Shown one piece after another: positions 18,225 to 31,091 of a DNA stretch of 34,094 nt. Position 1 is the stretch's first letter; the number at the start of each line of letters is the position of its first letter. The notes below the pieces were generated by a model, which ran no database searches, had not been told where the DNA came from, and worked only from the letters and a program-made list of their open reading frames with translations. Position numbers and translations under genes: made by a program. Source of the stretch: a bacterium (GTDB lineage Bacteria > Actinomycetota > Acidimicrobiia > Acidimicrobiales > Bin134); contig JAPOSH010000021.1 of NCBI GenBank assembly GCA_026709815.1, forward strand, positions 1 through 34,094, written 5' to 3'.

Positions 18225-18653
18225 TCAGACCTGCACAGCAGCGACTCGGCGAAGGTTGATAGTATGGTGCCGCTTGTCGCCTCTTTCGGCATCCTTGAGT
18301 TTAGCAGCAACCACATCCCAGTGTTTGGCCACCATGCGAACGTAGTGCCAAATCGATTCGTCCCTGCCGAGGAGGAAGAACACCACAGTGGGCGAGTTAC
18401 GCAGGAGACCAGCGGTTGACTTTTCCCGAAGGATGCGATTGTCATGAGTGAAAGCTGGCCAGCCATTTTGGCCAGCAATCTTTATCCAATCCTCATCAGA
18501 AGTACGCCGAGGTGTGCCAGGAAAACTGGGATGCCCCGGATAGACGACATCTATTCCTGCCCTCTCCAATGTCAGTCCCAAGCCGAGCAAGTCCTCGTCG
18601 ATAAACCATCGTCGCCTCTCGATTCGCCTGGAATGCTTCACGCTGCGACACAA
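18225..18653 (-). CDS. PIN-like (VapC45/DUF5615-like) putative toxin
   Basis: RRWFIDEDLLGLGLTLERAGIDVVYPGHPSF...TSDEDWIKIAGQNGWPAFTHDNRILRE follows the acidic-residue pattern of PIN-like proteins; overlaps upstream antitoxin-like gene by 16 bp; TTG start. Confidence 0.7.
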   Translation of the reverse strand: MCRSVKHSRRIERRRWFIDEDLLGLGLTLERAGIDVVYPGHPSFPGTPRRTSDEDWIKIAGQNGWPAFTHDNRILREKSTAGLLRNSPTVVFFLLGRDESIWHYVRMVAKHWDVVAAKLKDAERGDKRHHTINLRRVAAVQV

Positions 18654-19387
18654 GCCGTGATCTGACGGGAGCGGAGTTTTTTCTCGAATCGCACAGCCTC
18701 TTTCACCTGCCCAACCGAGAGGTCATAAACATCCGCCAAGTATTCGGCGCTATCACCACCTTTGTTGAAACCGTAGATCGTGCGGGTTGTCGTAGCCGTT
18801 CCCTCTATGACAGGGCAACCGGCTTTGAGCACGGGGTCGACAACGACTCCGATGTCGCGGCCTGCCGGCCAGTAACAGATAGCCGTGTCGCCGTCGAAGT
18901 CGATCCGGCTGGCGAACGCGGCAACAGATGCCAGCTGCTCGCGCGAAGGAGAGCCGGGCGGGATGAACTCCACTTCGGACCGGAACGCCGCGTGGGGGGC
19001 GATCTGGTGCTGACCGTCACGGTGACGCCATGCCGCTCCGTCGGGTGAGTGGTCAAGCAGCTCACGGGCCGGGCCGACATACGGTTTGAGGTGGGCCAAG
19101 GGGTAAGGAATCCCCTCGGAATCCCGCCAATCGCCCACATAGTCTCTCAGCTGCTGGAGCGATGCGTCCATGCGGCGATAGGCGACAAGATGTCCTGCCT
19201 CGATGAACTCGCCCCAAGACAGGAGCTTGTCGTCTATCAGTCGCTCCTGGCGAAGAACCGGCTCCGCTCGCCGCTGACCACGCTGGCCGTGCAGCCAGTA
19301 GCGGAGCGTGTTCTGGTGCACGCCGAGCAGATTGCCCGCCTCGGGAATCGTGTAGACCTTGCGGTCAAGCACGCTTTCCTCGCTCAC
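18638..19387 (-). CDS. MerR-type HTH plus DUF433-like putative antitoxin (VapB45-like)
   Basis: YTIPEAGNLLGVHQNTLRYWLHG and VVDPVLKAGCPVIEGTATTTRTIYGFNKGGDSAEYLADVYDLSVGQVKEAVRFE. Confidence 0.7.
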   Translation of the reverse strand: MSEESVLDRKVYTIPEAGNLLGVHQNTLRYWLHGQRGQRRAEPVLRQERLIDDKLLSWGEFIEAGHLVAYRRMDASLQQLRDYVGDWRDSEGIPYPLAHLKPYVGPARELLDHSPDGAAWRHRDGQHQIAPHAAFRSEVEFIPPGSPSREQLASVAAFASRIDFDGDTAICYWPAGRDIGVVVDPVLKAGCPVIEGTATTTRTIYGFNKGGDSAEYLADVYDLSVGQVKEAVRFEKKLRSRQITACVAA

Positions 19388-19482: not shown

Positions 19483-20355
19483 TCAGGGTTGTTCGCGGTA
19501 GCGGCGGATTATGGCGGTGGTGTCGAGGCGGTTCTCGCCTGCGGCGGCGGTGGCCTGGGTATAGCGCTGGCAGAGTTCCACGAGGGGGACGGGGGCGCCG
19601 AGCTCGGCGGCGGCGGCGGCCACCAGACCGAGGTCTTTGATCATCCAGTCAACGGCGAAACCGAAGTCGAACTCGTCGGCCACCATGGTGTGACCCCGGT
19701 TCTGGAGATACCAGGACCCGGCCGCCCCCTTGGTGACGGCGGTCAGCACCTTGTCCATGTCGAGCCCCGCCCGCTCGCCGAAGGCCAGCGCCTCGGCTGC
19801 CCCCTGCACCGCGCCGGCGCACAGGATCTGATTGACCATCTTGGTGAGCTGCCCCGACCCGGCTGGCCCCATGAGGGTGATGGCGGAGGAATAGGCCTCC
19901 ATCACCGGTCGGGCGGCAGCGAAGTGCTCCGGCTCGCCGCCGCACATCACGGTGAGCACCCCGTTCTCGGCCCCGGCCTGCCCCCCGGAGACGGGGGCGT
20001 CCAGCCAGCCGATTCCCTGAGGGGCGCACACCCCGGCCAGCTCTCGGGCCAGCGCGGCCGACGCGGTGGTGTGGTCCACCAGCACCGATCCGGCGGCCAT
20101 GGCGCCCAGCGCACCGGAATCGCCCAGCACCACCTCCCGCAGGTCGTCGTCAGCCCCCACGCAGGTGAACACGAACCCGGCCCCGTCGGCCGCCTCGGCC
20201 GGGGTGGCGGCCACTGCTCCGCGGTGCTGTTCGCCCCAGCGCTCGGCCACGGCGGGCGTCCGGTTGAACACCCGCACCTCGCCGGCGGCCGCCGCTAGGT
20301 GCCCGGCCATGGGATAACCCATGTTGCCCAGTCCGATGAACGCGCAAATGCTCAC
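19483..20355 (-). CDS. NAD(P)-dependent oxidoreductase, 3-hydroxyisobutyrate dehydrogenase-like
   Basis: CAFIGLGNMGYPMAGHLAAAAGEVRVFNRTP, DAPVSGGQAGAENGVLTVMCGG, GQLTKMVNQILCAG; GTG start 20355. Confidence 0.93.
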   Translation of the reverse strand: MSICAFIGLGNMGYPMAGHLAAAAGEVRVFNRTPAVAERWGEQHRGAVAATPAEAADGAGFVFTCVGADDDLREVVLGDSGALGAMAAGSVLVDHTTASAALARELAGVCAPQGIGWLDAPVSGGQAGAENGVLTVMCGGEPEHFAAARPVMEAYSSAITLMGPAGSGQLTKMVNQILCAGAVQGAAEALAFGERAGLDMDKVLTAVTKGAAGSWYLQNRGHTMVADEFDFGFAVDWMIKDLGLVAAAAAELGAPVPLVELCQRYTQATAAAGENRLDTTAIIRRYREQP

Positions 20356-20436
20356 GGCGGCCACGATACCGGCCCGACCTCGCCGCACCCTCGGCGATGG
20401 GCGGCGCCAGCAGCACCCCCCTTAGCATCAGGAGCG

Positions 20437-21330
20437 ATGAGATACAGCCAAAAAGGGCGGATGGCCCCTCATCCGATGGACAGCATCGGCGTGGTCGACC
20501 TCATGCTGGGGGTGCCGCCAGACCGCGACGCCTGGTACGCCGGCTTCCAAAGACTGCTGAAGGACACCGAGAGCCGCAGCTTCGGCCACGGCGCGGCCTA
20601 CATGTTCAAGGACCTGCCCCAAGTGGACGGCGCCGTGGACTTCATCGCCTATCTGCTGGCCGAGATGGACCGCTGGGGCATCGAAAAGGGGCTGCTGCCG
20701 GTGAGCTTCGGAGACGCCTGGGGCGCCCGGGGGGTGGCCGAGCATCCCGACCGCCTCTACGGCAGCTACCTGGTGGACCCCAACCAGGGCGGGCAGGCGG
20801 TGCGGGACCTGCGCCGAGCGGTGGACGAGCTCGGGGTCGTCGCCGCGGCCTGCTTTCCCGCCGGCCTGCACCCGCCGGTCGAAATCAACGAGCCGCTGAT
20901 GTATCCGCTCTACGCAGCCTGCTGCGAGCTGGAGATTCCCGTGTGTCTGAACGCGGGAGTGCCAGGACCGCGGTTCCCGTTCGGCCCCCAGCACGTCGAG
21001 CACCTCGATCAGGTGTGCGACGACTTCCCCGAACTGGTGCTGGTCACCCGCCATGGTTCCGAGCCGTGGGAGGATCTCATGGTGGAACTCATGTTGAAGT
21101 GGCCGGGCCTGCTCTATTCCACCTCGGCGTTCGCCCCCAAGCACTATCCGAGGGCCATCATCGACTACGCCAACACCCGGGGGGCCGACAAGGTGATGTA
21201 CGCCGGATATTTCCCCTCCGGCCTGTCGCTGGAGCGAATCATGACGGAGATGCGCGATGTGCCGCTGCGCGACCATGTCTGGCCTAAATTCCTGCGAGAG
21301 AACGCCCTGCGGGTGTTCAATATGGCATGA
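20437..21330 (+). CDS. Amidohydrolase family protein
   Basis: DLMLGVPPDRDAW...VVAAACFPAGLHPPVEINEPLMYPLYAACCELEIPVCLNAG...FPELVLVTRHGSEPWEDLMVELMLKWPGLLYSTSAFAPKHYP. Confidence 0.8.
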   Translation: MRYSQKGRMAPHPMDSIGVVDLMLGVPPDRDAWYAGFQRLLKDTESRSFGHGAAYMFKDLPQVDGAVDFIAYLLAEMDRWGIEKGLLPVSFGDAWGARGVAEHPDRLYGSYLVDPNQGGQAVRDLRRAVDELGVVAAACFPAGLHPPVEINEPLMYPLYAACCELEIPVCLNAGVPGPRFPFGPQHVEHLDQVCDDFPELVLVTRHGSEPWEDLMVELMLKWPGLLYSTSAFAPKHYPRAIIDYANTRGADKVMYAGYFPSGLSLERIMTEMRDVPLRDHVWPKFLRENALRVFNMA

Positions 21331-21920
21331 GCGTATTGGAGCACATCATCCGTCGGCGCGATCTGGGAGTGATCGACTCCCTCCTCGGCGCAGGCATTCT
21401 GGCCGTCGCAGTGTTCATGTGGGCCGAGCGGTCGGTGGTGGTCGATCCAGGCGGCGAGGCCACCGGCAATTGGAAGTGGCAGCTGTGGCAGATCGGTTCG
21501 GTGGCGCTGGCTTTGGGCGGCGTCTGGCTGCTGTGGCGCAACACCAGCAAGGTGCCCTGGGTGCGCACGCTGTGCCTGTCGTCGCTGGCGATGGCCGTCA
21601 TGCTCAACCAGTACACCGATGTCTTCAACGACAGCGGGAACCTGTGGATCACCATCAATCCGCTGTACATCGCCTGTGCCACCGTGGCCGGCTTCACCGG
21701 ATGGCGCCGGGTGATCGCCCAACGGCAAGGGCTGGAACCGGCCAGCCCCTTCACCCCGGCTGCGGCCACGATTGCGACGGGGATGGCGGTGACGATGCTG
21801 GTCAACGTGTACTTCACCAACGATGCGGGCGCGTGGTACATCCTCGACCCGCTGATGATCTTGACCCTGCTGATCTGGGCCTCAGCAGCACGACGCACCA
21901 ACGTGGGCGACGCCATCTGA
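21327..21920 (+). CDS. Multi-pass membrane protein of unknown function
   Basis: Several hydrophobic helices; ATGA overlap with the amidohydrolase gene. Confidence 0.75.
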   Translation: MSVLEHIIRRRDLGVIDSLLGAGILAVAVFMWAERSVVVDPGGEATGNWKWQLWQIGSVALALGGVWLLWRNTSKVPWVRTLCLSSLAMAVMLNQYTDVFNDSGNLWITINPLYIACATVAGFTGWRRVIAQRQGLEPASPFTPAAATIATGMAVTMLVNVYFTNDAGAWYILDPLMILTLLIWASAARRTNVGDAI

Positions 21921-21988
21921 CCCGATACGCTCCCCCACAACCAGATCACAGGAGCACGGCCATGCCCGAAGTAAACGGCTACGCCCAT
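21768..21988. repeat. Left copy of 221 bp imperfect direct repeat (3' end of membrane gene + intergenic + first 9 codons of VOC gene)
   Basis: Aligns with 22829-23049 at constant offset 1061 with about 7 mismatches by eye. Confidence 0.95.
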
Positions 21989-22157: not shown

Positions 22158-22730
22158 TCACTGTTTGATGCGCATCGGCCCGCGGTTGTCTCCGTGGCCC
22201 CTCCAGGTGGCCGTCTCAATGCGTTTGCCGATTTCCACTGCGGCTTCAAGCGCGGGCAGCAGGTCAGTGTCGGCTGAGAACACCACTGCGGTGTCGTAGG
22301 CGTCGGTTCGGGCCATGTCCACCACGTCCACCGCAAGCATCACGTCGACGCCCTTTTCCTGCGCCCGCCACACTGTTCGGCTCCCCGCGGTGGACTGGTG
22401 ATAGGCCAGCGGCCTGGTTTTGACCACAATGCCCGCCGAGCGCTGCCACCCGGCTATCTGCCGGGATGTAAACCGAACTAGATCGGCACCGCTTCTGGCG
22501 TCGGGCAGCCCCCGATATACCCGCACACCGCCCAGCTCGCGGTCCGGGAGACTGGATCGCCCCAGGTCGCACAGCATCTCGCCGACCTTGAGAGGGTAGA
22601 CATGGCCGACGTTCCTGTCCGGGCTTCCCTCGTGGCCGAATGCGGACCGGGCCAGATGGTAGACGTTTTGGTAGTCGATGAACACCACGACCCGATGGGC
22701 GCACACGACTCCAAAAAATAGCCCCGCCAT
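22158..22730 (-). CDS. NYN domain (LabA/DUF88-like, PIN-fold RNase-like) protein
   Basis: HRVVVFIDYQNVYHLAR ... EKGVDVMLAVDVVDMARTDAYDTAVVFSADTDLLPALEAA; in-frame reading continues past TGA to 22080. Confidence 0.85.
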   Translation of the reverse strand: MAGLFFGVVCAHRVVVFIDYQNVYHLARSAFGHEGSPDRNVGHVYPLKVGEMLCDLGRSSLPDRELGGVRVYRGLPDARSGADLVRFTSRQIAGWQRSAGIVVKTRPLAYHQSTAGSRTVWRAQEKGVDVMLAVDVVDMARTDAYDTAVVFSADTDLLPALEAAVEIGKRIETATWRGHGDNRGPMRIKQ

Positions 22731-22755
22731 GCCCTGTAGAACAGGGCAGGCGGGG
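22722..22755 (-). promoter_or_regulatory. 14-bp-stem hairpin at NYN gene start, followed by U-run (attenuator or terminator candidate)
   Basis: Minus strand CCCCGCC-T-GCCCTGT-TCT-ACAGGGC-AT-GGCGGGG then CTATTTTTTGG. Confidence 0.6.
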
Positions 22756-22828
22756 AAAAACGAAAATAGAGTACTCGCCTGATGCACTAGCCCACAACCC
22801 GCTAAACCCTCAACAAGCGCAGACAGCG

Positions 22829-23049
22829 ACGATTGCGACGGGGATGGCGGTGACGATGCTGGTCAACGTGTACTTCACCAACGATGCGGGCGCGTGGTAC
22901 ATCCTCGACCCGCTGATGATCTTGACCCTGCTGATCTGGGCCTCAGCAGCACGGCGCACCAACGTGGGCGACGCCATCTGACCCGATACGCTCCCCCACA
23001 ACCGCACGACAGGAGCACGGCCATGCCCGAAGTAAATGGCTACGTCCAT
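22829..23049. repeat. Right copy of 221 bp imperfect direct repeat
   Basis: See 21768-21988. Confidence 0.95.
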
Positions 23050-23805: not shown

Positions 23806-23864
23806 TCTCGCTAGAAGGAGAAAGTCTTTTGAGGGTTGGCTTTGGATGACTGATTTGTCTCCTC

Positions 23865-24215
23865 TCACTTCTCCTTGAGAATTGCATTCCTTGAGGTGAA
23901 CCTTGCGGAGTCGCGGAGCTTTCGCTTGATTGCCTTAGTTTTCTTTCCGATGACAAGGGCATGAGCAGGATTTTCGGGTATCGGATCAGCTATCGTCTCT
24001 TGGTTGAGAGCTTGAGCGATTCTAGCTTCAAACTCTGCCACTCCAACACTATCAACCAAGGTTTTTGACTTTTCTTTTTGAACACTAGCGACATCAACCG
24101 ACATCTCATCGCCAGAAAAAGCTGCTGACGACACTTTTCCATTTTCGAGTAGATGATATTTATGAACGCGTCTCCACAACAGCTCTTCGCCGTCCAGGGT
24201 TTCTTGATCCTTCAA
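23865..24215 (-). CDS. Hypothetical protein (LWRRVHKYHLLENGKVSSAAFSGDEMSVDVASVQ family), third gene of operon
   Basis: ORF with TTGA 4-nt overlap with upstream gene; AT-rich local composition. Confidence 0.75.
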   Translation of the reverse strand: MKDQETLDGEELLWRRVHKYHLLENGKVSSAAFSGDEMSVDVASVQKEKSKTLVDSVGVAEFEARIAQALNQETIADPIPENPAHALVIGKKTKAIKRKLRDSARFTSRNAILKEK

Positions 24216-24745
24216 TCAGCTCCGCTCTTCATATCGGCAATGCAATCTCTGAGCAGCCCCCAGACCAATGTACTGCTGCTGTCTGCCTCTATTTCCTGTT
24301 CGCTCCCTGAAGGATCAGCGAGAAAGATCTTCGCAGCTCCAATAGATGGAACTTCGATTTCAATCTCATAGCTGCCGCTTGCCCATTCGATCTGCACCCC
24401 TCCATCTGACATAGGCACAACCTCAGGGGCAGGGCCCTCAGGGCAGACCGCTTTTAAGACCTCCACTACTCTCCTGAGTGTGCTCTCGTGGATAGTTCTC
24501 TCTCCATAGCCGTTCCAGTTCTCACTTAGAGCAAGAAACCCTCTAAGTCGCTCAAGAATTGGATTAAACCAAGGCTGTTTACCCAAAGTAGCTGATATCT
24601 CTAATGGTACCTCGCGTCTCTCTGATCCAAGAACTGTACCACCTGTAGATGTCAGAACTTCTGAAGCTCCAGACCTAGTTTGAGCTAGCCACGACAATGT
24701 TGATGAACCGGATGCTGTTAAGAGATCTTGTTCAACAAAGCTCAT
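24212..24745 (-). CDS. Hypothetical protein (SENWNGYGERTI...VVPMSDGGVQIEWASGSYEIEIEV), second gene of operon
   Basis: ATG 24745 gives an ATGA 4-nt overlap with upstream TIGR04255-like gene. Confidence 0.8.
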   Translation of the reverse strand: MSFVEQDLLTASGSSTLSWLAQTRSGASEVLTSTGGTVLGSERREVPLEISATLGKQPWFNPILERLRGFLALSENWNGYGERTIHESTLRRVVEVLKAVCPEGPAPEVVPMSDGGVQIEWASGSYEIEIEVPSIGAAKIFLADPSGSEQEIEADSSSTLVWGLLRDCIADMKSGAD

Positions 24746-25545
24746 ACTGTGCGCTTCCATATTTCATGAGCATTTTTTGTGGTAACTGAAGTGAATCCCC
24801 GAACTATCCATTCATGGGCAACATCCATAAAGCTAAGAGCACCGTTTAGATTAGGGGAAGTCGATGGACCGCGAGAGATCAGGTTCATAACTAATCTATC
24901 TTCATAACTGTTCATAGAAATAGATTGTCCATCTATAGTCAGCCACCCACGATCGTTAGGAAGTTCATATCGGGAAAAAAAGCCTGATTGACAAGCTGGA
25001 GGAAGAAATCCATCGCTCACCACTTCGTTCCAGAGAGCAATTATAGCAGAAGTGTCGCCTGCTGAGTACCAGCCGCTATCCGCGCCGATATGGTTGACAT
25101 ATACTACTTCACAAATTGAAGGTTTAGGCGCTGCTAAATGTAATCCGTCAATCACTCCTTCTAACAGCTCCCATGATTCAACTAGAAATTCTCTGATTGA
25201 GGAATATCGAGGATATGGTGTATCAGCTGGAAGCTTGCGCCAATTGACGACAAGACGATCCTGCTGAAGCTGAACTAAGCGATTTCCGCCTTCGTTCATC
25301 ATCCACAGTCTAGGCGTTTCAACCTCACCGCTCACACGCAGCTCCAATGAAGGGGCCTCTGGCTGGACCATCATTGGTGGCAGTGCTGGTCGCTCTTCCA
25401 CAACGGGAAGTTCGCTCGACCAGGTCTCGGCAATATGACCAAGCTCCAACGACCGGTAGCCGATGGCCGATTCAAATTGGATGGCCAAGGCAACCTCGAC
25501 AACCGGAGGTCGGTCGTAGGCAGGGAGAACTCCGACGGGTGCCAT
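24742..25545 (-). CDS. TIGR04255-like family protein (function unknown), first gene of operon
   Basis: YDRPPVVEVALAIQFESAIGYRSLELGHIAETW...GNRLVQLQQDRLVVNWRKLPADTPYPRYSSIREFLVESWELL; ATG 25545 preferred over track start 25644. Confidence 0.78.
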   Translation of the reverse strand: MAPVGVLPAYDRPPVVEVALAIQFESAIGYRSLELGHIAETWSSELPVVEERPALPPMMVQPEAPSLELRVSGEVETPRLWMMNEGGNRLVQLQQDRLVVNWRKLPADTPYPRYSSIREFLVESWELLEGVIDGLHLAAPKPSICEVVYVNHIGADSGWYSAGDTSAIIALWNEVVSDGFLPPACQSGFFSRYELPNDRGWLTIDGQSISMNSYEDRLVMNLISRGPSTSPNLNGALSFMDVAHEWIVRGFTSVTTKNAHEIWKRTV

Positions 25546-25677
25546 GTCGATGGGCTTCACGATAGTGCAAATTGTTCCGACGCGGGTGCGGGCCGCCAAA
25601 TCGGGAACGTCGATAGCGAGCAATGGCTCCGCGTAGGCTGGCATGTCGATCTAATGCCATTCCCTGAGGAGGCTCCG

Positions 25678-29696: not shown

Positions 29697-31091
29697 GTGG
29701 CCAAAGCGCTCACACCGCCGAGTTGGCGGGAACTGCTCGCCGAGATCTCTGAAGGGAGCCAGCAGAGATTGCTCGACGTGCTGACCGCGGGGAAACCAGT
29801 TGACCCCAAGGGCCGGTACCTGCACTGGGACGAGATGCGGCACCGGACCCCGCCTGAGGGCCTCACCCTTGACGAGTGGTGGGTGGGAACTGCCTACAGC
29901 CGCTCGGCAATCGCCCGCACGCTGCCTCTGACCGGTGTGGAGGGAGAGCCCTTCCGGTTCGCCAACGTCGACCGCATCCAAGAGATGGTCCACCACATCG
30001 ACAAGTACGCCAGCGGGCAGATCCAGGCTGACGACCCGGTTGCCAGCGTGAGATCCAGCGACCGCTATATGGTCTCCTCGCTCATGGAGGAGGCAGTCAC
30101 CTCCAGCTTGTTGGAGGGCGCGGCGACCACTCGGAGAGTGGCAAAGGGGATGCTGCGGACCCAGCGACGCCCTCGGACCCACGGAGAGCGCATGGTGTCC
30201 AACAACTTCAATGCGATGCTGGCCGCTGAGAAGCTCGCCCGAAGCGACGCCTCCTTGGCCCCAGACGACGTTTTAGAACTCCACCGGATCGTGACCGACG
30301 GCACGTTGGAAGACGAGTCGGAGGCCGGCCGCCTTCAACAACCCGGAGAAGAACGAGTCTTGGTGATTGATTCCGACGACACCGTGCTGCATCGGCCGCC
30401 GCCCGCAGAGGAATTGCCCGATCGGCTGGAACAGCTCTGCGCCTTTGCCAACGGCGAGAACGCCGAGGGCTTCCTGCACCCTGTGGTTCGAGCCGTCCTG
30501 ATCCATTTATGGGTTGGTTATGACCACCCGTTTGCCGACGGCAACGGGCGCACGGCGCGGACGCTGTTCTACTGGGCCATGCTGCGGTCGGGATACTGGC
30601 TGGCCCAGTACATCTCCATCTCCGCCATCCTGCGCCAAGCACCAGGGCAGTACAAGAAGTCGTACCTGAAAACCGAGACCGACGGCAACGACGCCACCTA
30701 CTTCGTGATCTACCAGCTCAAGGTGATCGAGCGGGCCATCGACAGCCTGCGGAAATACCTGGCTCGCAAAACAACAGAGATCGCTGAGACCAAGCAGCTC
30801 CTGCATAGCGTCTCAGGGCTCAACCACCGCCAGCTCTCCATCATCGGCGACGCGTTGAACGATCCGAACCAGACATTCACCATCGGAGGCCAGGCACAGC
30901 TGCACCGGGTGGTGTACCAATCAGCCCGAACTGATTTGCTGGCGCTAGAGAAACTCGGGCTCTTGTCAAAAACCAAGGCCGGCAAGAAATTCGAGTTCCA
31001 CGCCACTGCCGACCTCCAAGACCGACTCCGCGCCCTCATAGAGCACCAACCGGCGGGTCAGGCCACCGAAACGACAACCCTGAAGTACTAA
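29697..31091 (+). CDS. Fic family protein (predicted adenylyltransferase) with C-terminal winged-helix-like region
   Basis: Fic motif YDHPFADGNGRTARTLFYWAMLR; GTG start 29697. Confidence 0.93.
   Translation: MAKALTPPSWRELLAEISEGSQQRLLDVLTAGKPVDPKGRYLHWDEMRHRTPPEGLTLDEWWVGTAYSRSAIARTLPLTGVEGEPFRFANVDRIQEMVHHIDKYASGQIQADDPVASVRSSDRYMVSSLMEEAVTSSLLEGAATTRRVAKGMLRTQRRPRTHGERMVSNNFNAMLAAEKLARSDASLAPDDVLELHRIVTDGTLEDESEAGRLQQPGEERVLVIDSDDTVLHRPPPAEELPDRLEQLCAFANGENAEGFLHPVVRAVLIHLWVGYDHPFADGNGRTARTLFYWAMLRSGYWLAQYISISAILRQAPGQYKKSYLKTETDGNDATYFVIYQLKVIERAIDSLRKYLARKTTEIAETKQLLHSVSGLNHRQLSIIGDALNDPNQTFTIGGQAQLHRVVYQSARTDLLALEKLGLLSKTKAGKKFEFHATADLQDRLRALIEHQPAGQATETTTLKY

What the first reader, a model, noticed from the sequence alone, without database searches (positions are those of the whole stretch)
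23865..25545. Three-gene, translationally coupled, AT-rich cassette: TIGR04255-like protein plus two uncharacterised proteins
Seen: three minus-strand ORFs with 4-nt start/stop overlaps at both junctions (ATGA at 24742-24745, TTGA at 24212-24215), in a block visibly more AT-rich than both flanks, placed between a VOC gene and a sulfatase gene. Known: TIGR04255 is a sporadically distributed family of unknown function; I recall protein motifs like those of genes B and C as recurrent hypothetical families, but cannot confirm it here. Inference: strict coupling plus anomalous composition suggests a horizontally acquired functional unit whose products act together, possibly defence, TA-like or stress related. 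No catalytic motif was recognised.
Basis: partly seen in the sequence, partly recalled or inferred. Interest (0 to 1): 0.85.

Follow-up and report, generated by a model that had tools for sequence, protein, structure and literature searches.

The report
Mobile three-gene cassette, candidate phage defence
Three small linked genes of unknown function travel together between bacteria as one unit, two of them match a predicted but untested anti-phage pair, and the smallest is predicted to fold like enzymes that use the cofactor NAD, so the unit is probably a previously undescribed toxin-like or virus-defence system.

Summary
Genes A (TIGR04255), B and C overlap by 4 nt (ATGA, TTGA) and sit in a 43-51% GC island inside ~66% GC DNA. 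In nine same-genus genomes the two flanking genes lie 16-68 bp apart, without the cassette. A cassette from the same genus groups with those of other families, so it moves horizontally. B and C match PDC-M32A and PDC-M32B, a computational PADLOC "phage defence candidate" pair. B is homologous only to the last third of M32A (profile E 9e-21). The rest of M32A is unrelated to TIGR04255, so A-B-C is a separate architecture. C (AF2 pLDDT 94) matches ADP-ribosyltransferase folds (Tpt1/KptA, HopF) in two libraries, weakly (E >= 0.1), with R-S-H invariant; no sequence homology to KptA, RES or DUF952 was found. Best reading: a TA-like or abortive-defence cassette with an ART-fold effector (C), a shared bridging module (B) and an exchangeable partner (A). 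Function is unproven, and defence-island enrichment was not shown.

The parts
24742..25545 (-). Gene A: TIGR04255 family protein (267 aa), divergent subfamily found with B-C; AF2 model (pLDDT 89) has two successive strand-helix-strands-long-helix units resembling a TBP-like saddle
   Evidence: NCBIfam E 1.6e-17; no Pfam, PADLOC or PHROG hit; AF2; Foldseek best hit TBP, E 2.7e-3, prob 0.91, TM 0.23, so weak
24212..24745 (-). Gene B (177 aa): its C-terminal ~100-aa module is the same as the C-terminal third of PDC-M32A; W77, G115 and W121 (near-)invariant
   Evidence: PADLOC PDC-M32A E 5.5e-10 to profile 263-339/375; profile-profile prob 99.3, E 9e-21; alignments
23865..24215 (-). Gene C (116 aa, TTG start): PDC-M32B homologue with predicted minimal ADP-ribosyltransferase (Tpt1/KptA-like) fold; invariant R15, S39, H85
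   Evidence: PADLOC PDC-M32B E 9e-7; AF2 pLDDT 94; Foldseek top 7 PDB hits Tpt1 x6 and AvrPphF ORF2, BFVD hits KptA proteins; residue counts
25574..25608 (-). Imperfect inverted repeat in the leader of A (near-perfect arms in the relative L006); possible operator or hairpin
   Evidence: direct reading of upstream sequences; seen only in the window and L006, function not tested
23806..25677 (.). Whole segment between VOC and sulfatase genes that is absent (flanks 16-68 bp apart) in nine same-genus genomes

Best explanation
A-B-C is a horizontally mobile, probably co-transcribed three-gene conflict cassette (toxin-antitoxin-like or abortive anti-phage) built as an architectural variant of the PADLOC candidate PDC-M32. 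Shown: conserved gene order, mobility, purifying selection, homology of B and C to M32A-Cter and M32B, and a free-standing TIGR04255 protein in place of M32A's N-terminal domain. Inferred: C is the effector, a minimal ADP-ribosyltransferase-fold enzyme that uses NAD+ through R15 (strand 1), S39 (strand 2) and H85 (third motif position). B is the bridging or inhibitory module that holds C. A is the exchangeable sensor or regulatory partner that releases or activates C when a trigger such as phage infection is sensed. A is called exchangeable because other TIGR04255 proteins pair with HTH antitoxin-like genes and other B-C pairs carry a different N-terminal domain. The expected outcome is NAD+ consumption or target ADP-ribosylation and growth arrest.
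For: A-B-C order in 21 intact loci. Pairwise divergence of the three proteins is correlated: Spearman 0.52, 0.33, 0.35, Mantel p <= 0.0035. dN/dS 0.16 for A and 0.18 for C; B has pN well below pS. Nine empty sites in the genus, a deleted relic in G011 and frame-broken copies elsewhere. The A tree puts a same-genus copy (L011) with other families at 97/97 and L034 with L037 at 98/95. Copy beside mobF on a Mycobacterium plasmid; integrases next to L037 and L038. PADLOC PDC-M32A/B hits and B-M32A profile match E 9e-21. C fold: Tpt1 (8tfz, 8tfi, 6e3a, 9lda, 7kw8, 9ldg) and AvrPphF ORF2 take the top 7 PDB places. In BFVD the named top hits are again KptA proteins, some from viruses that PMC9503650 lists as KptA carriers. 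R15 in 28 of 28 aligned sequences, S39 in 28 of 29, H85 in 29 of 29. Partner swapping: TIGR04255 with HTH/Xre-like genes; B-C with another N-domain.
Against: The Foldseek matches of C are weak (E 0.12-0.7, TM ~0.43) and no sequence-profile similarity to KptA, RES or DUF952 was found. C lacks the catalytic Glu of canonical R-S-E ARTs. B was not modelled, no complex was predicted, and which gene is toxin or antitoxin is undetermined. PADLOC neighbourhood enrichment did not clearly exceed a control. PDC-M32 has not been tested experimentally in any paper found.
Confidence: 0.4

Rival explanations
1. Mobile TA-like or defence cassette, but C is not an enzyme: the ART resemblance is superficial and C is a small binding or regulatory subunit, the active component being A (nucleic-acid binding, TBP-like) or B.
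For: The ART match of C is fold-only and below conventional significance; no catalytic Glu; the model of A weakly resembles TBP.
Against: Two libraries independently return ART-fold proteins first; the invariant polar residues of C sit on strands 1, 2 and a third strand, as ART active-site motifs do.
Confidence: 0.25
2. Stability (addiction) module of mobile elements rather than anti-phage defence: the cassette is kept because it punishes loss.
For: Plasmid copy beside mobF, copies next to integrases, pairing of related TIGR04255 genes with Xre-like/ParS antitoxin HTH proteins.
Against: Many chromosomal copies without an adjacent mobility gene; frequent decay and clean absence at the window's own site, although this also fits decayed addiction modules.
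Confidence: 0.15
3. NAD+-dependent RNA repair or nucleotide processing system (KptA-like), for instance counteracting RNA-cleaving defences or damage.
For: The closest fold of C is Tpt1/KptA, an RNA-repair enzyme.
Against: C lacks Tpt1's RNA lobe and its Arg-His-Arg-Arg tetrad; no RNA ligase or kinase neighbour was noticed, though neighbours were not fully annotated.
Confidence: 0.07
4. Accessory metabolic operon functionally tied to the neighbouring sulfatase and VOC genes.
For: Adjacent to the sulfatase in the window and in G021.
Against: Opposite strand, different composition, absent between the same two genes in nine sister genomes, and other A-B-C loci have unrelated neighbours.
Confidence: 0.02

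Closest known systems
PDC-M32 (PADLOC phage defence candidate, genes M32A + M32B)
   Same: B is homologous to the C-terminal third of M32A, C is homologous to M32B, same order, overlapping genes.
   Different: M32A's ~250-aa N-terminal domain is absent and unrelated to gene A (profile comparison prob 0.2); a separate TIGR04255 gene takes its place. The only paper found that mentions PDC-M32 reports PADLOC hits in Sinorhizobium prophages, no function (PMC12429752).
TIGR04255 family (NCBIfam sporadTIGR04255)
   Same: A is above the curated cut-off over the full model.
   Different: A-type proteins of A-B-C score low (about 34-68 bits); most other TIGR04255 genes of the order score 77-160 bits and are usually followed by an HTH gene, not by B-C.
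RES-Xre and DarTG-type ART toxin-antitoxin systems
   Same: Predicted ART-fold effector in a small mobile multi-gene cassette; RES toxins too have altered ART motifs (PMC9503650).
   Different: No sequence similarity of C to RES; the antitoxin-like HTH is missing in A-B-C; the third motif residue is His. Similarity to DarTG was not tested.
Tpt1/KptA RNA 2'-phosphotransferase
   Same: Predicted fold of C matches Tpt1 entries best; by size it corresponds to the NAD+-binding lobe.
   Different: C has no RNA lobe and lacks the Arg-His-Arg-Arg tetrad; no sequence-profile match.

Membership tests
PDC-M32 | M32B homologue present next to the M32A-like gene | tested here: met
   C hits PDC-M32B, E 9.3e-7
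PDC-M32 | Full-length M32A (N-terminal domain plus C-terminal module) | tested here: not met
   B matches only profile 263-339 of 375; A does not match M32A's N-domain
PDC-M32 | Anti-phage activity | not testable with these tools
   No experimental report found
TIGR04255 | Score above the curated cut-off over the whole model | tested here: met
   64 bits vs 30, model 2-252/252
ADP-ribosyltransferase superfamily (for C) | ART fold | tested here: inconclusive
   AF2 model plus Foldseek: ART proteins rank first among named hits in both libraries but PDB E >= 0.1 and TM about 0.43
ADP-ribosyltransferase superfamily (for C) | Canonical active-site triad (R-S-E, H-Y-E/D/Q or H-H-h) | tested here: not met
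   Invariant residues are R15, S39, H85 with no conserved Glu; variant triads are known in RES (PMC9503650)
ADP-ribosyltransferase superfamily (for C) | NAD+ binding or turnover | not testable with these tools
   Needs biochemistry
RES-Xre toxin-antitoxin | RES domain (PF08808) plus Xre/MbcA/ParS antitoxin | tested here: not met
   No Pfam hit to either in A, B or C, hhalign C vs RES negative; Xre-like genes occur only with other TIGR04255 copies
Tpt1/KptA | Winged-helix RNA lobe plus Arg-His-Arg-Arg tetrad | tested here: not met
   C is 116 aa with no N-terminal lobe and conserved R-S-H only; tetrad and lobes from PMC6333775
Defence-island gene | Neighbourhood enriched in defence genes over control | tested here: inconclusive
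   59 PADLOC families in 115 flanking genes vs 46 in 115 control genes; Hma-type methyltransferase next to both G117 copies

The most novel reading that the evidence does not exclude
A-B-C is a new immune or toxin system in which a minimal (~115 aa) ADP-ribosyltransferase-fold effector with an R-S-H active site is kept in check by a B module and triggered by interchangeable sensors: TIGR04255 here, a different fused N-domain in PDC-M32. TIGR04255 itself would be a shared sensor that also serves Xre-like antitoxin systems.
Probability: 0.3. Interest if true: 0.8.

Novelty: new variant of a known kind. Interest (0 to 1): 0.55.

Why it matters
TIGR04255 and PDC-M32 are orphan families: one has no function, the other is a predicted defence pair with no mechanism. 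This locus links them, shows that B-C is a shared module with swappable partners, and offers a testable mechanism (an NAD+-using ART-like effector with the R15/S39/H85 triad). If true it would add a small effector type to bacterial conflict systems and explain many hypothetical genes on plasmids and chromosomes.

Tried and rejected
Pfam, PHROG and PDB sequence searches with A, B, C or their profiles: nothing meaningful; the FtsH_ext hit of C (E 0.007, below cut-off, 1 of 29 members) was discarded as chance. Profile-profile comparison of C with KptA, RES and DUF952: negative; the KptA side was a single sequence and the RES set was picked automatically from fetched loci, so these tests are of limited power. 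Sequence-level internal duplication of A, suggested by its repeated secondary structure: not supported (hhalign of the halves). A as the N-terminal part of M32A: rejected. Defence-island enrichment: raw hits looked suggestive (Hma, AbiLi, QatC, PD-T4-3, SoFic) but a matched control gave nearly as many families, so no claim is made. Structure of B and of the complex: not done (two prediction jobs used on A and C).

Full report
Observation. The three minus-strand ORFs, their 4-nt overlaps (ATGA 24742-24745, TTGA 24212-24215) and the AT-rich block are all present as described. A is a TIGR04255 protein (E 1.6e-17). B and C have no Pfam family. The sulfatase really begins at GTG 25678 (matching the start seen in sister genomes), so the cassette lies in an intergenic space of about 1.87 kb between it and the VOC gene.

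Is it a unit? Searching 148 related genomes with PDC-M32A, whose C-terminal module is B, returned B homologues. Most of them sit between an A and a C homologue in the same order. A sparse scan of the phylum added six A-B-C loci in other families, and a plasmid search added one on Mycobacterium paragordonae plasmid unnamed1, directly downstream of mobF. In total 21 intact A-B-C loci were compared. Junctions are overlapping or nearly so (A|B -17 to +16, B|C -8 to +38), and pairwise divergences are correlated (A-B 0.52, A-C 0.33, B-C 0.35; Mantel p 0.0005, 0.0035, 0.002). Between the window and its closest relative (L006; 69%, 55% and 62% amino-acid identity), dN/dS is 0.16 for A and 0.18 for C; for B pN is 0.27 and pS 0.75. 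The genes are therefore maintained by selection, not decaying here. Frame-broken or deleted copies exist elsewhere (L019, L025, L032; relic in G011, L107).

Is it mobile? In nine same-genus genomes the VOC and sulfatase genes are adjacent with 16-68 bp between the homologous flanks (L093-L100, L106). In others an amidohydrolase gene lies there, and in G021 both A-B-C and that gene do. No clear target-site duplication was seen, so the mode of insertion is unknown, and loss in the nine cannot be strictly excluded. In the A tree a same-genus copy (L011) groups with other families (97/97) and L034 with L037 (98/95). Copies also sit beside integrases.

What is it related to? PADLOC gives B = PDC-M32A (profile 263-339/375) and C = PDC-M32B. 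In the genuine two-gene M32 loci collected here (L008, L009, L041 and plasmids of Rhodococcus, Rhizobium and Limnohabitans), a ~250-aa N-terminal domain is fused to the B module and followed by C. Profile comparison: B vs M32A C-terminus prob 99.3, E 9e-21; A vs M32A N-terminus no match. A-B-C is therefore an architectural variant in which a TIGR04255 protein stands in the place of M32A's N-domain. Conversely, most other TIGR04255 genes in the order, including three loci in this genome, are followed by an HTH protein. Four of 24 such partners hit the Xre-like antitoxin HTH and one the Xre/MbcA/ParS toxin-binding domain. Both A and B-C thus recur with alternative partners.

What could it do? 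AF2 models were confident for A (pLDDT 89) and C (pLDDT 94). A contains two consecutive strand-helix-strands-long-helix units; the best PDB hits are TBP but with poor superposition, so this is only a hint, and no sequence duplication was detected. C's best PDB hits are six Tpt1/KptA entries and AvrPphF ORF2 (HopF2), all ADP-ribosyltransferase-fold proteins (E 0.12-0.74, prob 0.35-0.87). In the viral library the best hit is an unnamed protein (E 0.011) and the named hits that follow are KptA proteins, some of them from viruses that PMC9503650 independently lists as KptA carriers. R15 (strand 1), S39 (strand 2) and H85 are invariant in the family. ARTs are classed by active-site profile as H-H-h, H-Y-[EDQ] and R-S-E, and RES toxins keep NAD+ cleavage with altered motifs (PMC9503650); R-S-H would be a further variant. 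That assignment is my inference; sequence-profile methods found no homology.

Mechanism proposed. C is an NAD+-using effector, B its holding or bridging module, and A a sensor or regulator; the outcome is growth arrest on a trigger, for instance phage infection. Shown: conservation, mobility, selection, module homology. Predicted: folds of A and C. Inferred: enzymatic activity, polarity of inhibition, trigger, anti-phage function. PADLOC neighbourhood counts do not distinguish these loci from matched control regions (59 vs 46 families per 115 genes), although Hma-type methyltransferase genes flank both copies in G117.

Verdict. This is a real, conserved, mobile three-gene system for which no description was found: a new variant of the candidate PDC-M32, with a concrete but unproven effector hypothesis.

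Noticed in passing
L001, L002, L003 (own genome) and L175-L196: TIGR04255 genes of the order are mostly followed by an HTH gene (Xre-like antitoxin HTH in 4 of 24, Xre/MbcA/ParS C-terminal domain in 1), suggesting a second, more common TIGR04255-HTH pair; L001 has a third 226-aa gene.
   Followed up: partly
window 18231-19387 (-): PIN_10-like protein plus DUF433/HTH protein, a likely toxin-antitoxin pair in a locally AT-richer stretch.
   Followed up: no
window 22161-22787 (-): NYN-domain protein with a partial match to PADLOC HEC-09.
   Followed up: no
window 29697-31085 (+): Fic-like protein matching PADLOC SoFic (E 3.8e-37) a few kb from the cassette.
   Followed up: no
window 21789-21988 and 22850-23049: 200-bp direct duplication at 97% identity on either side of the NYN gene.
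   Followed up: no
L101-L105, L108 (same-genus genomes): The VOC-sulfatase junction is variable: empty, amidohydrolase gene only, A-B-C only, or both; the window carries the amidohydrolase homologue at 20302-21324 instead.
   Followed up: partly
L051 3947-5252 (Acetobacter persici plasmid): Tandemly duplicated B module followed by an SspB-like (ClpXP adaptor) gene instead of C.
   Followed up: no
window 25574-25608 and L006 upstream of A: Inverted repeat (CCCGATTTGG...CCAAATCGGG) just upstream of A, near-perfect in L006 and eroded in the window.
   Followed up: no
L007 4656-5673 (rumen MAG): B-C pair with no recognised A or M32A N-domain, in an uncultured rumen bacterium whose place in the taxonomy was not determined.
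   Followed up: no
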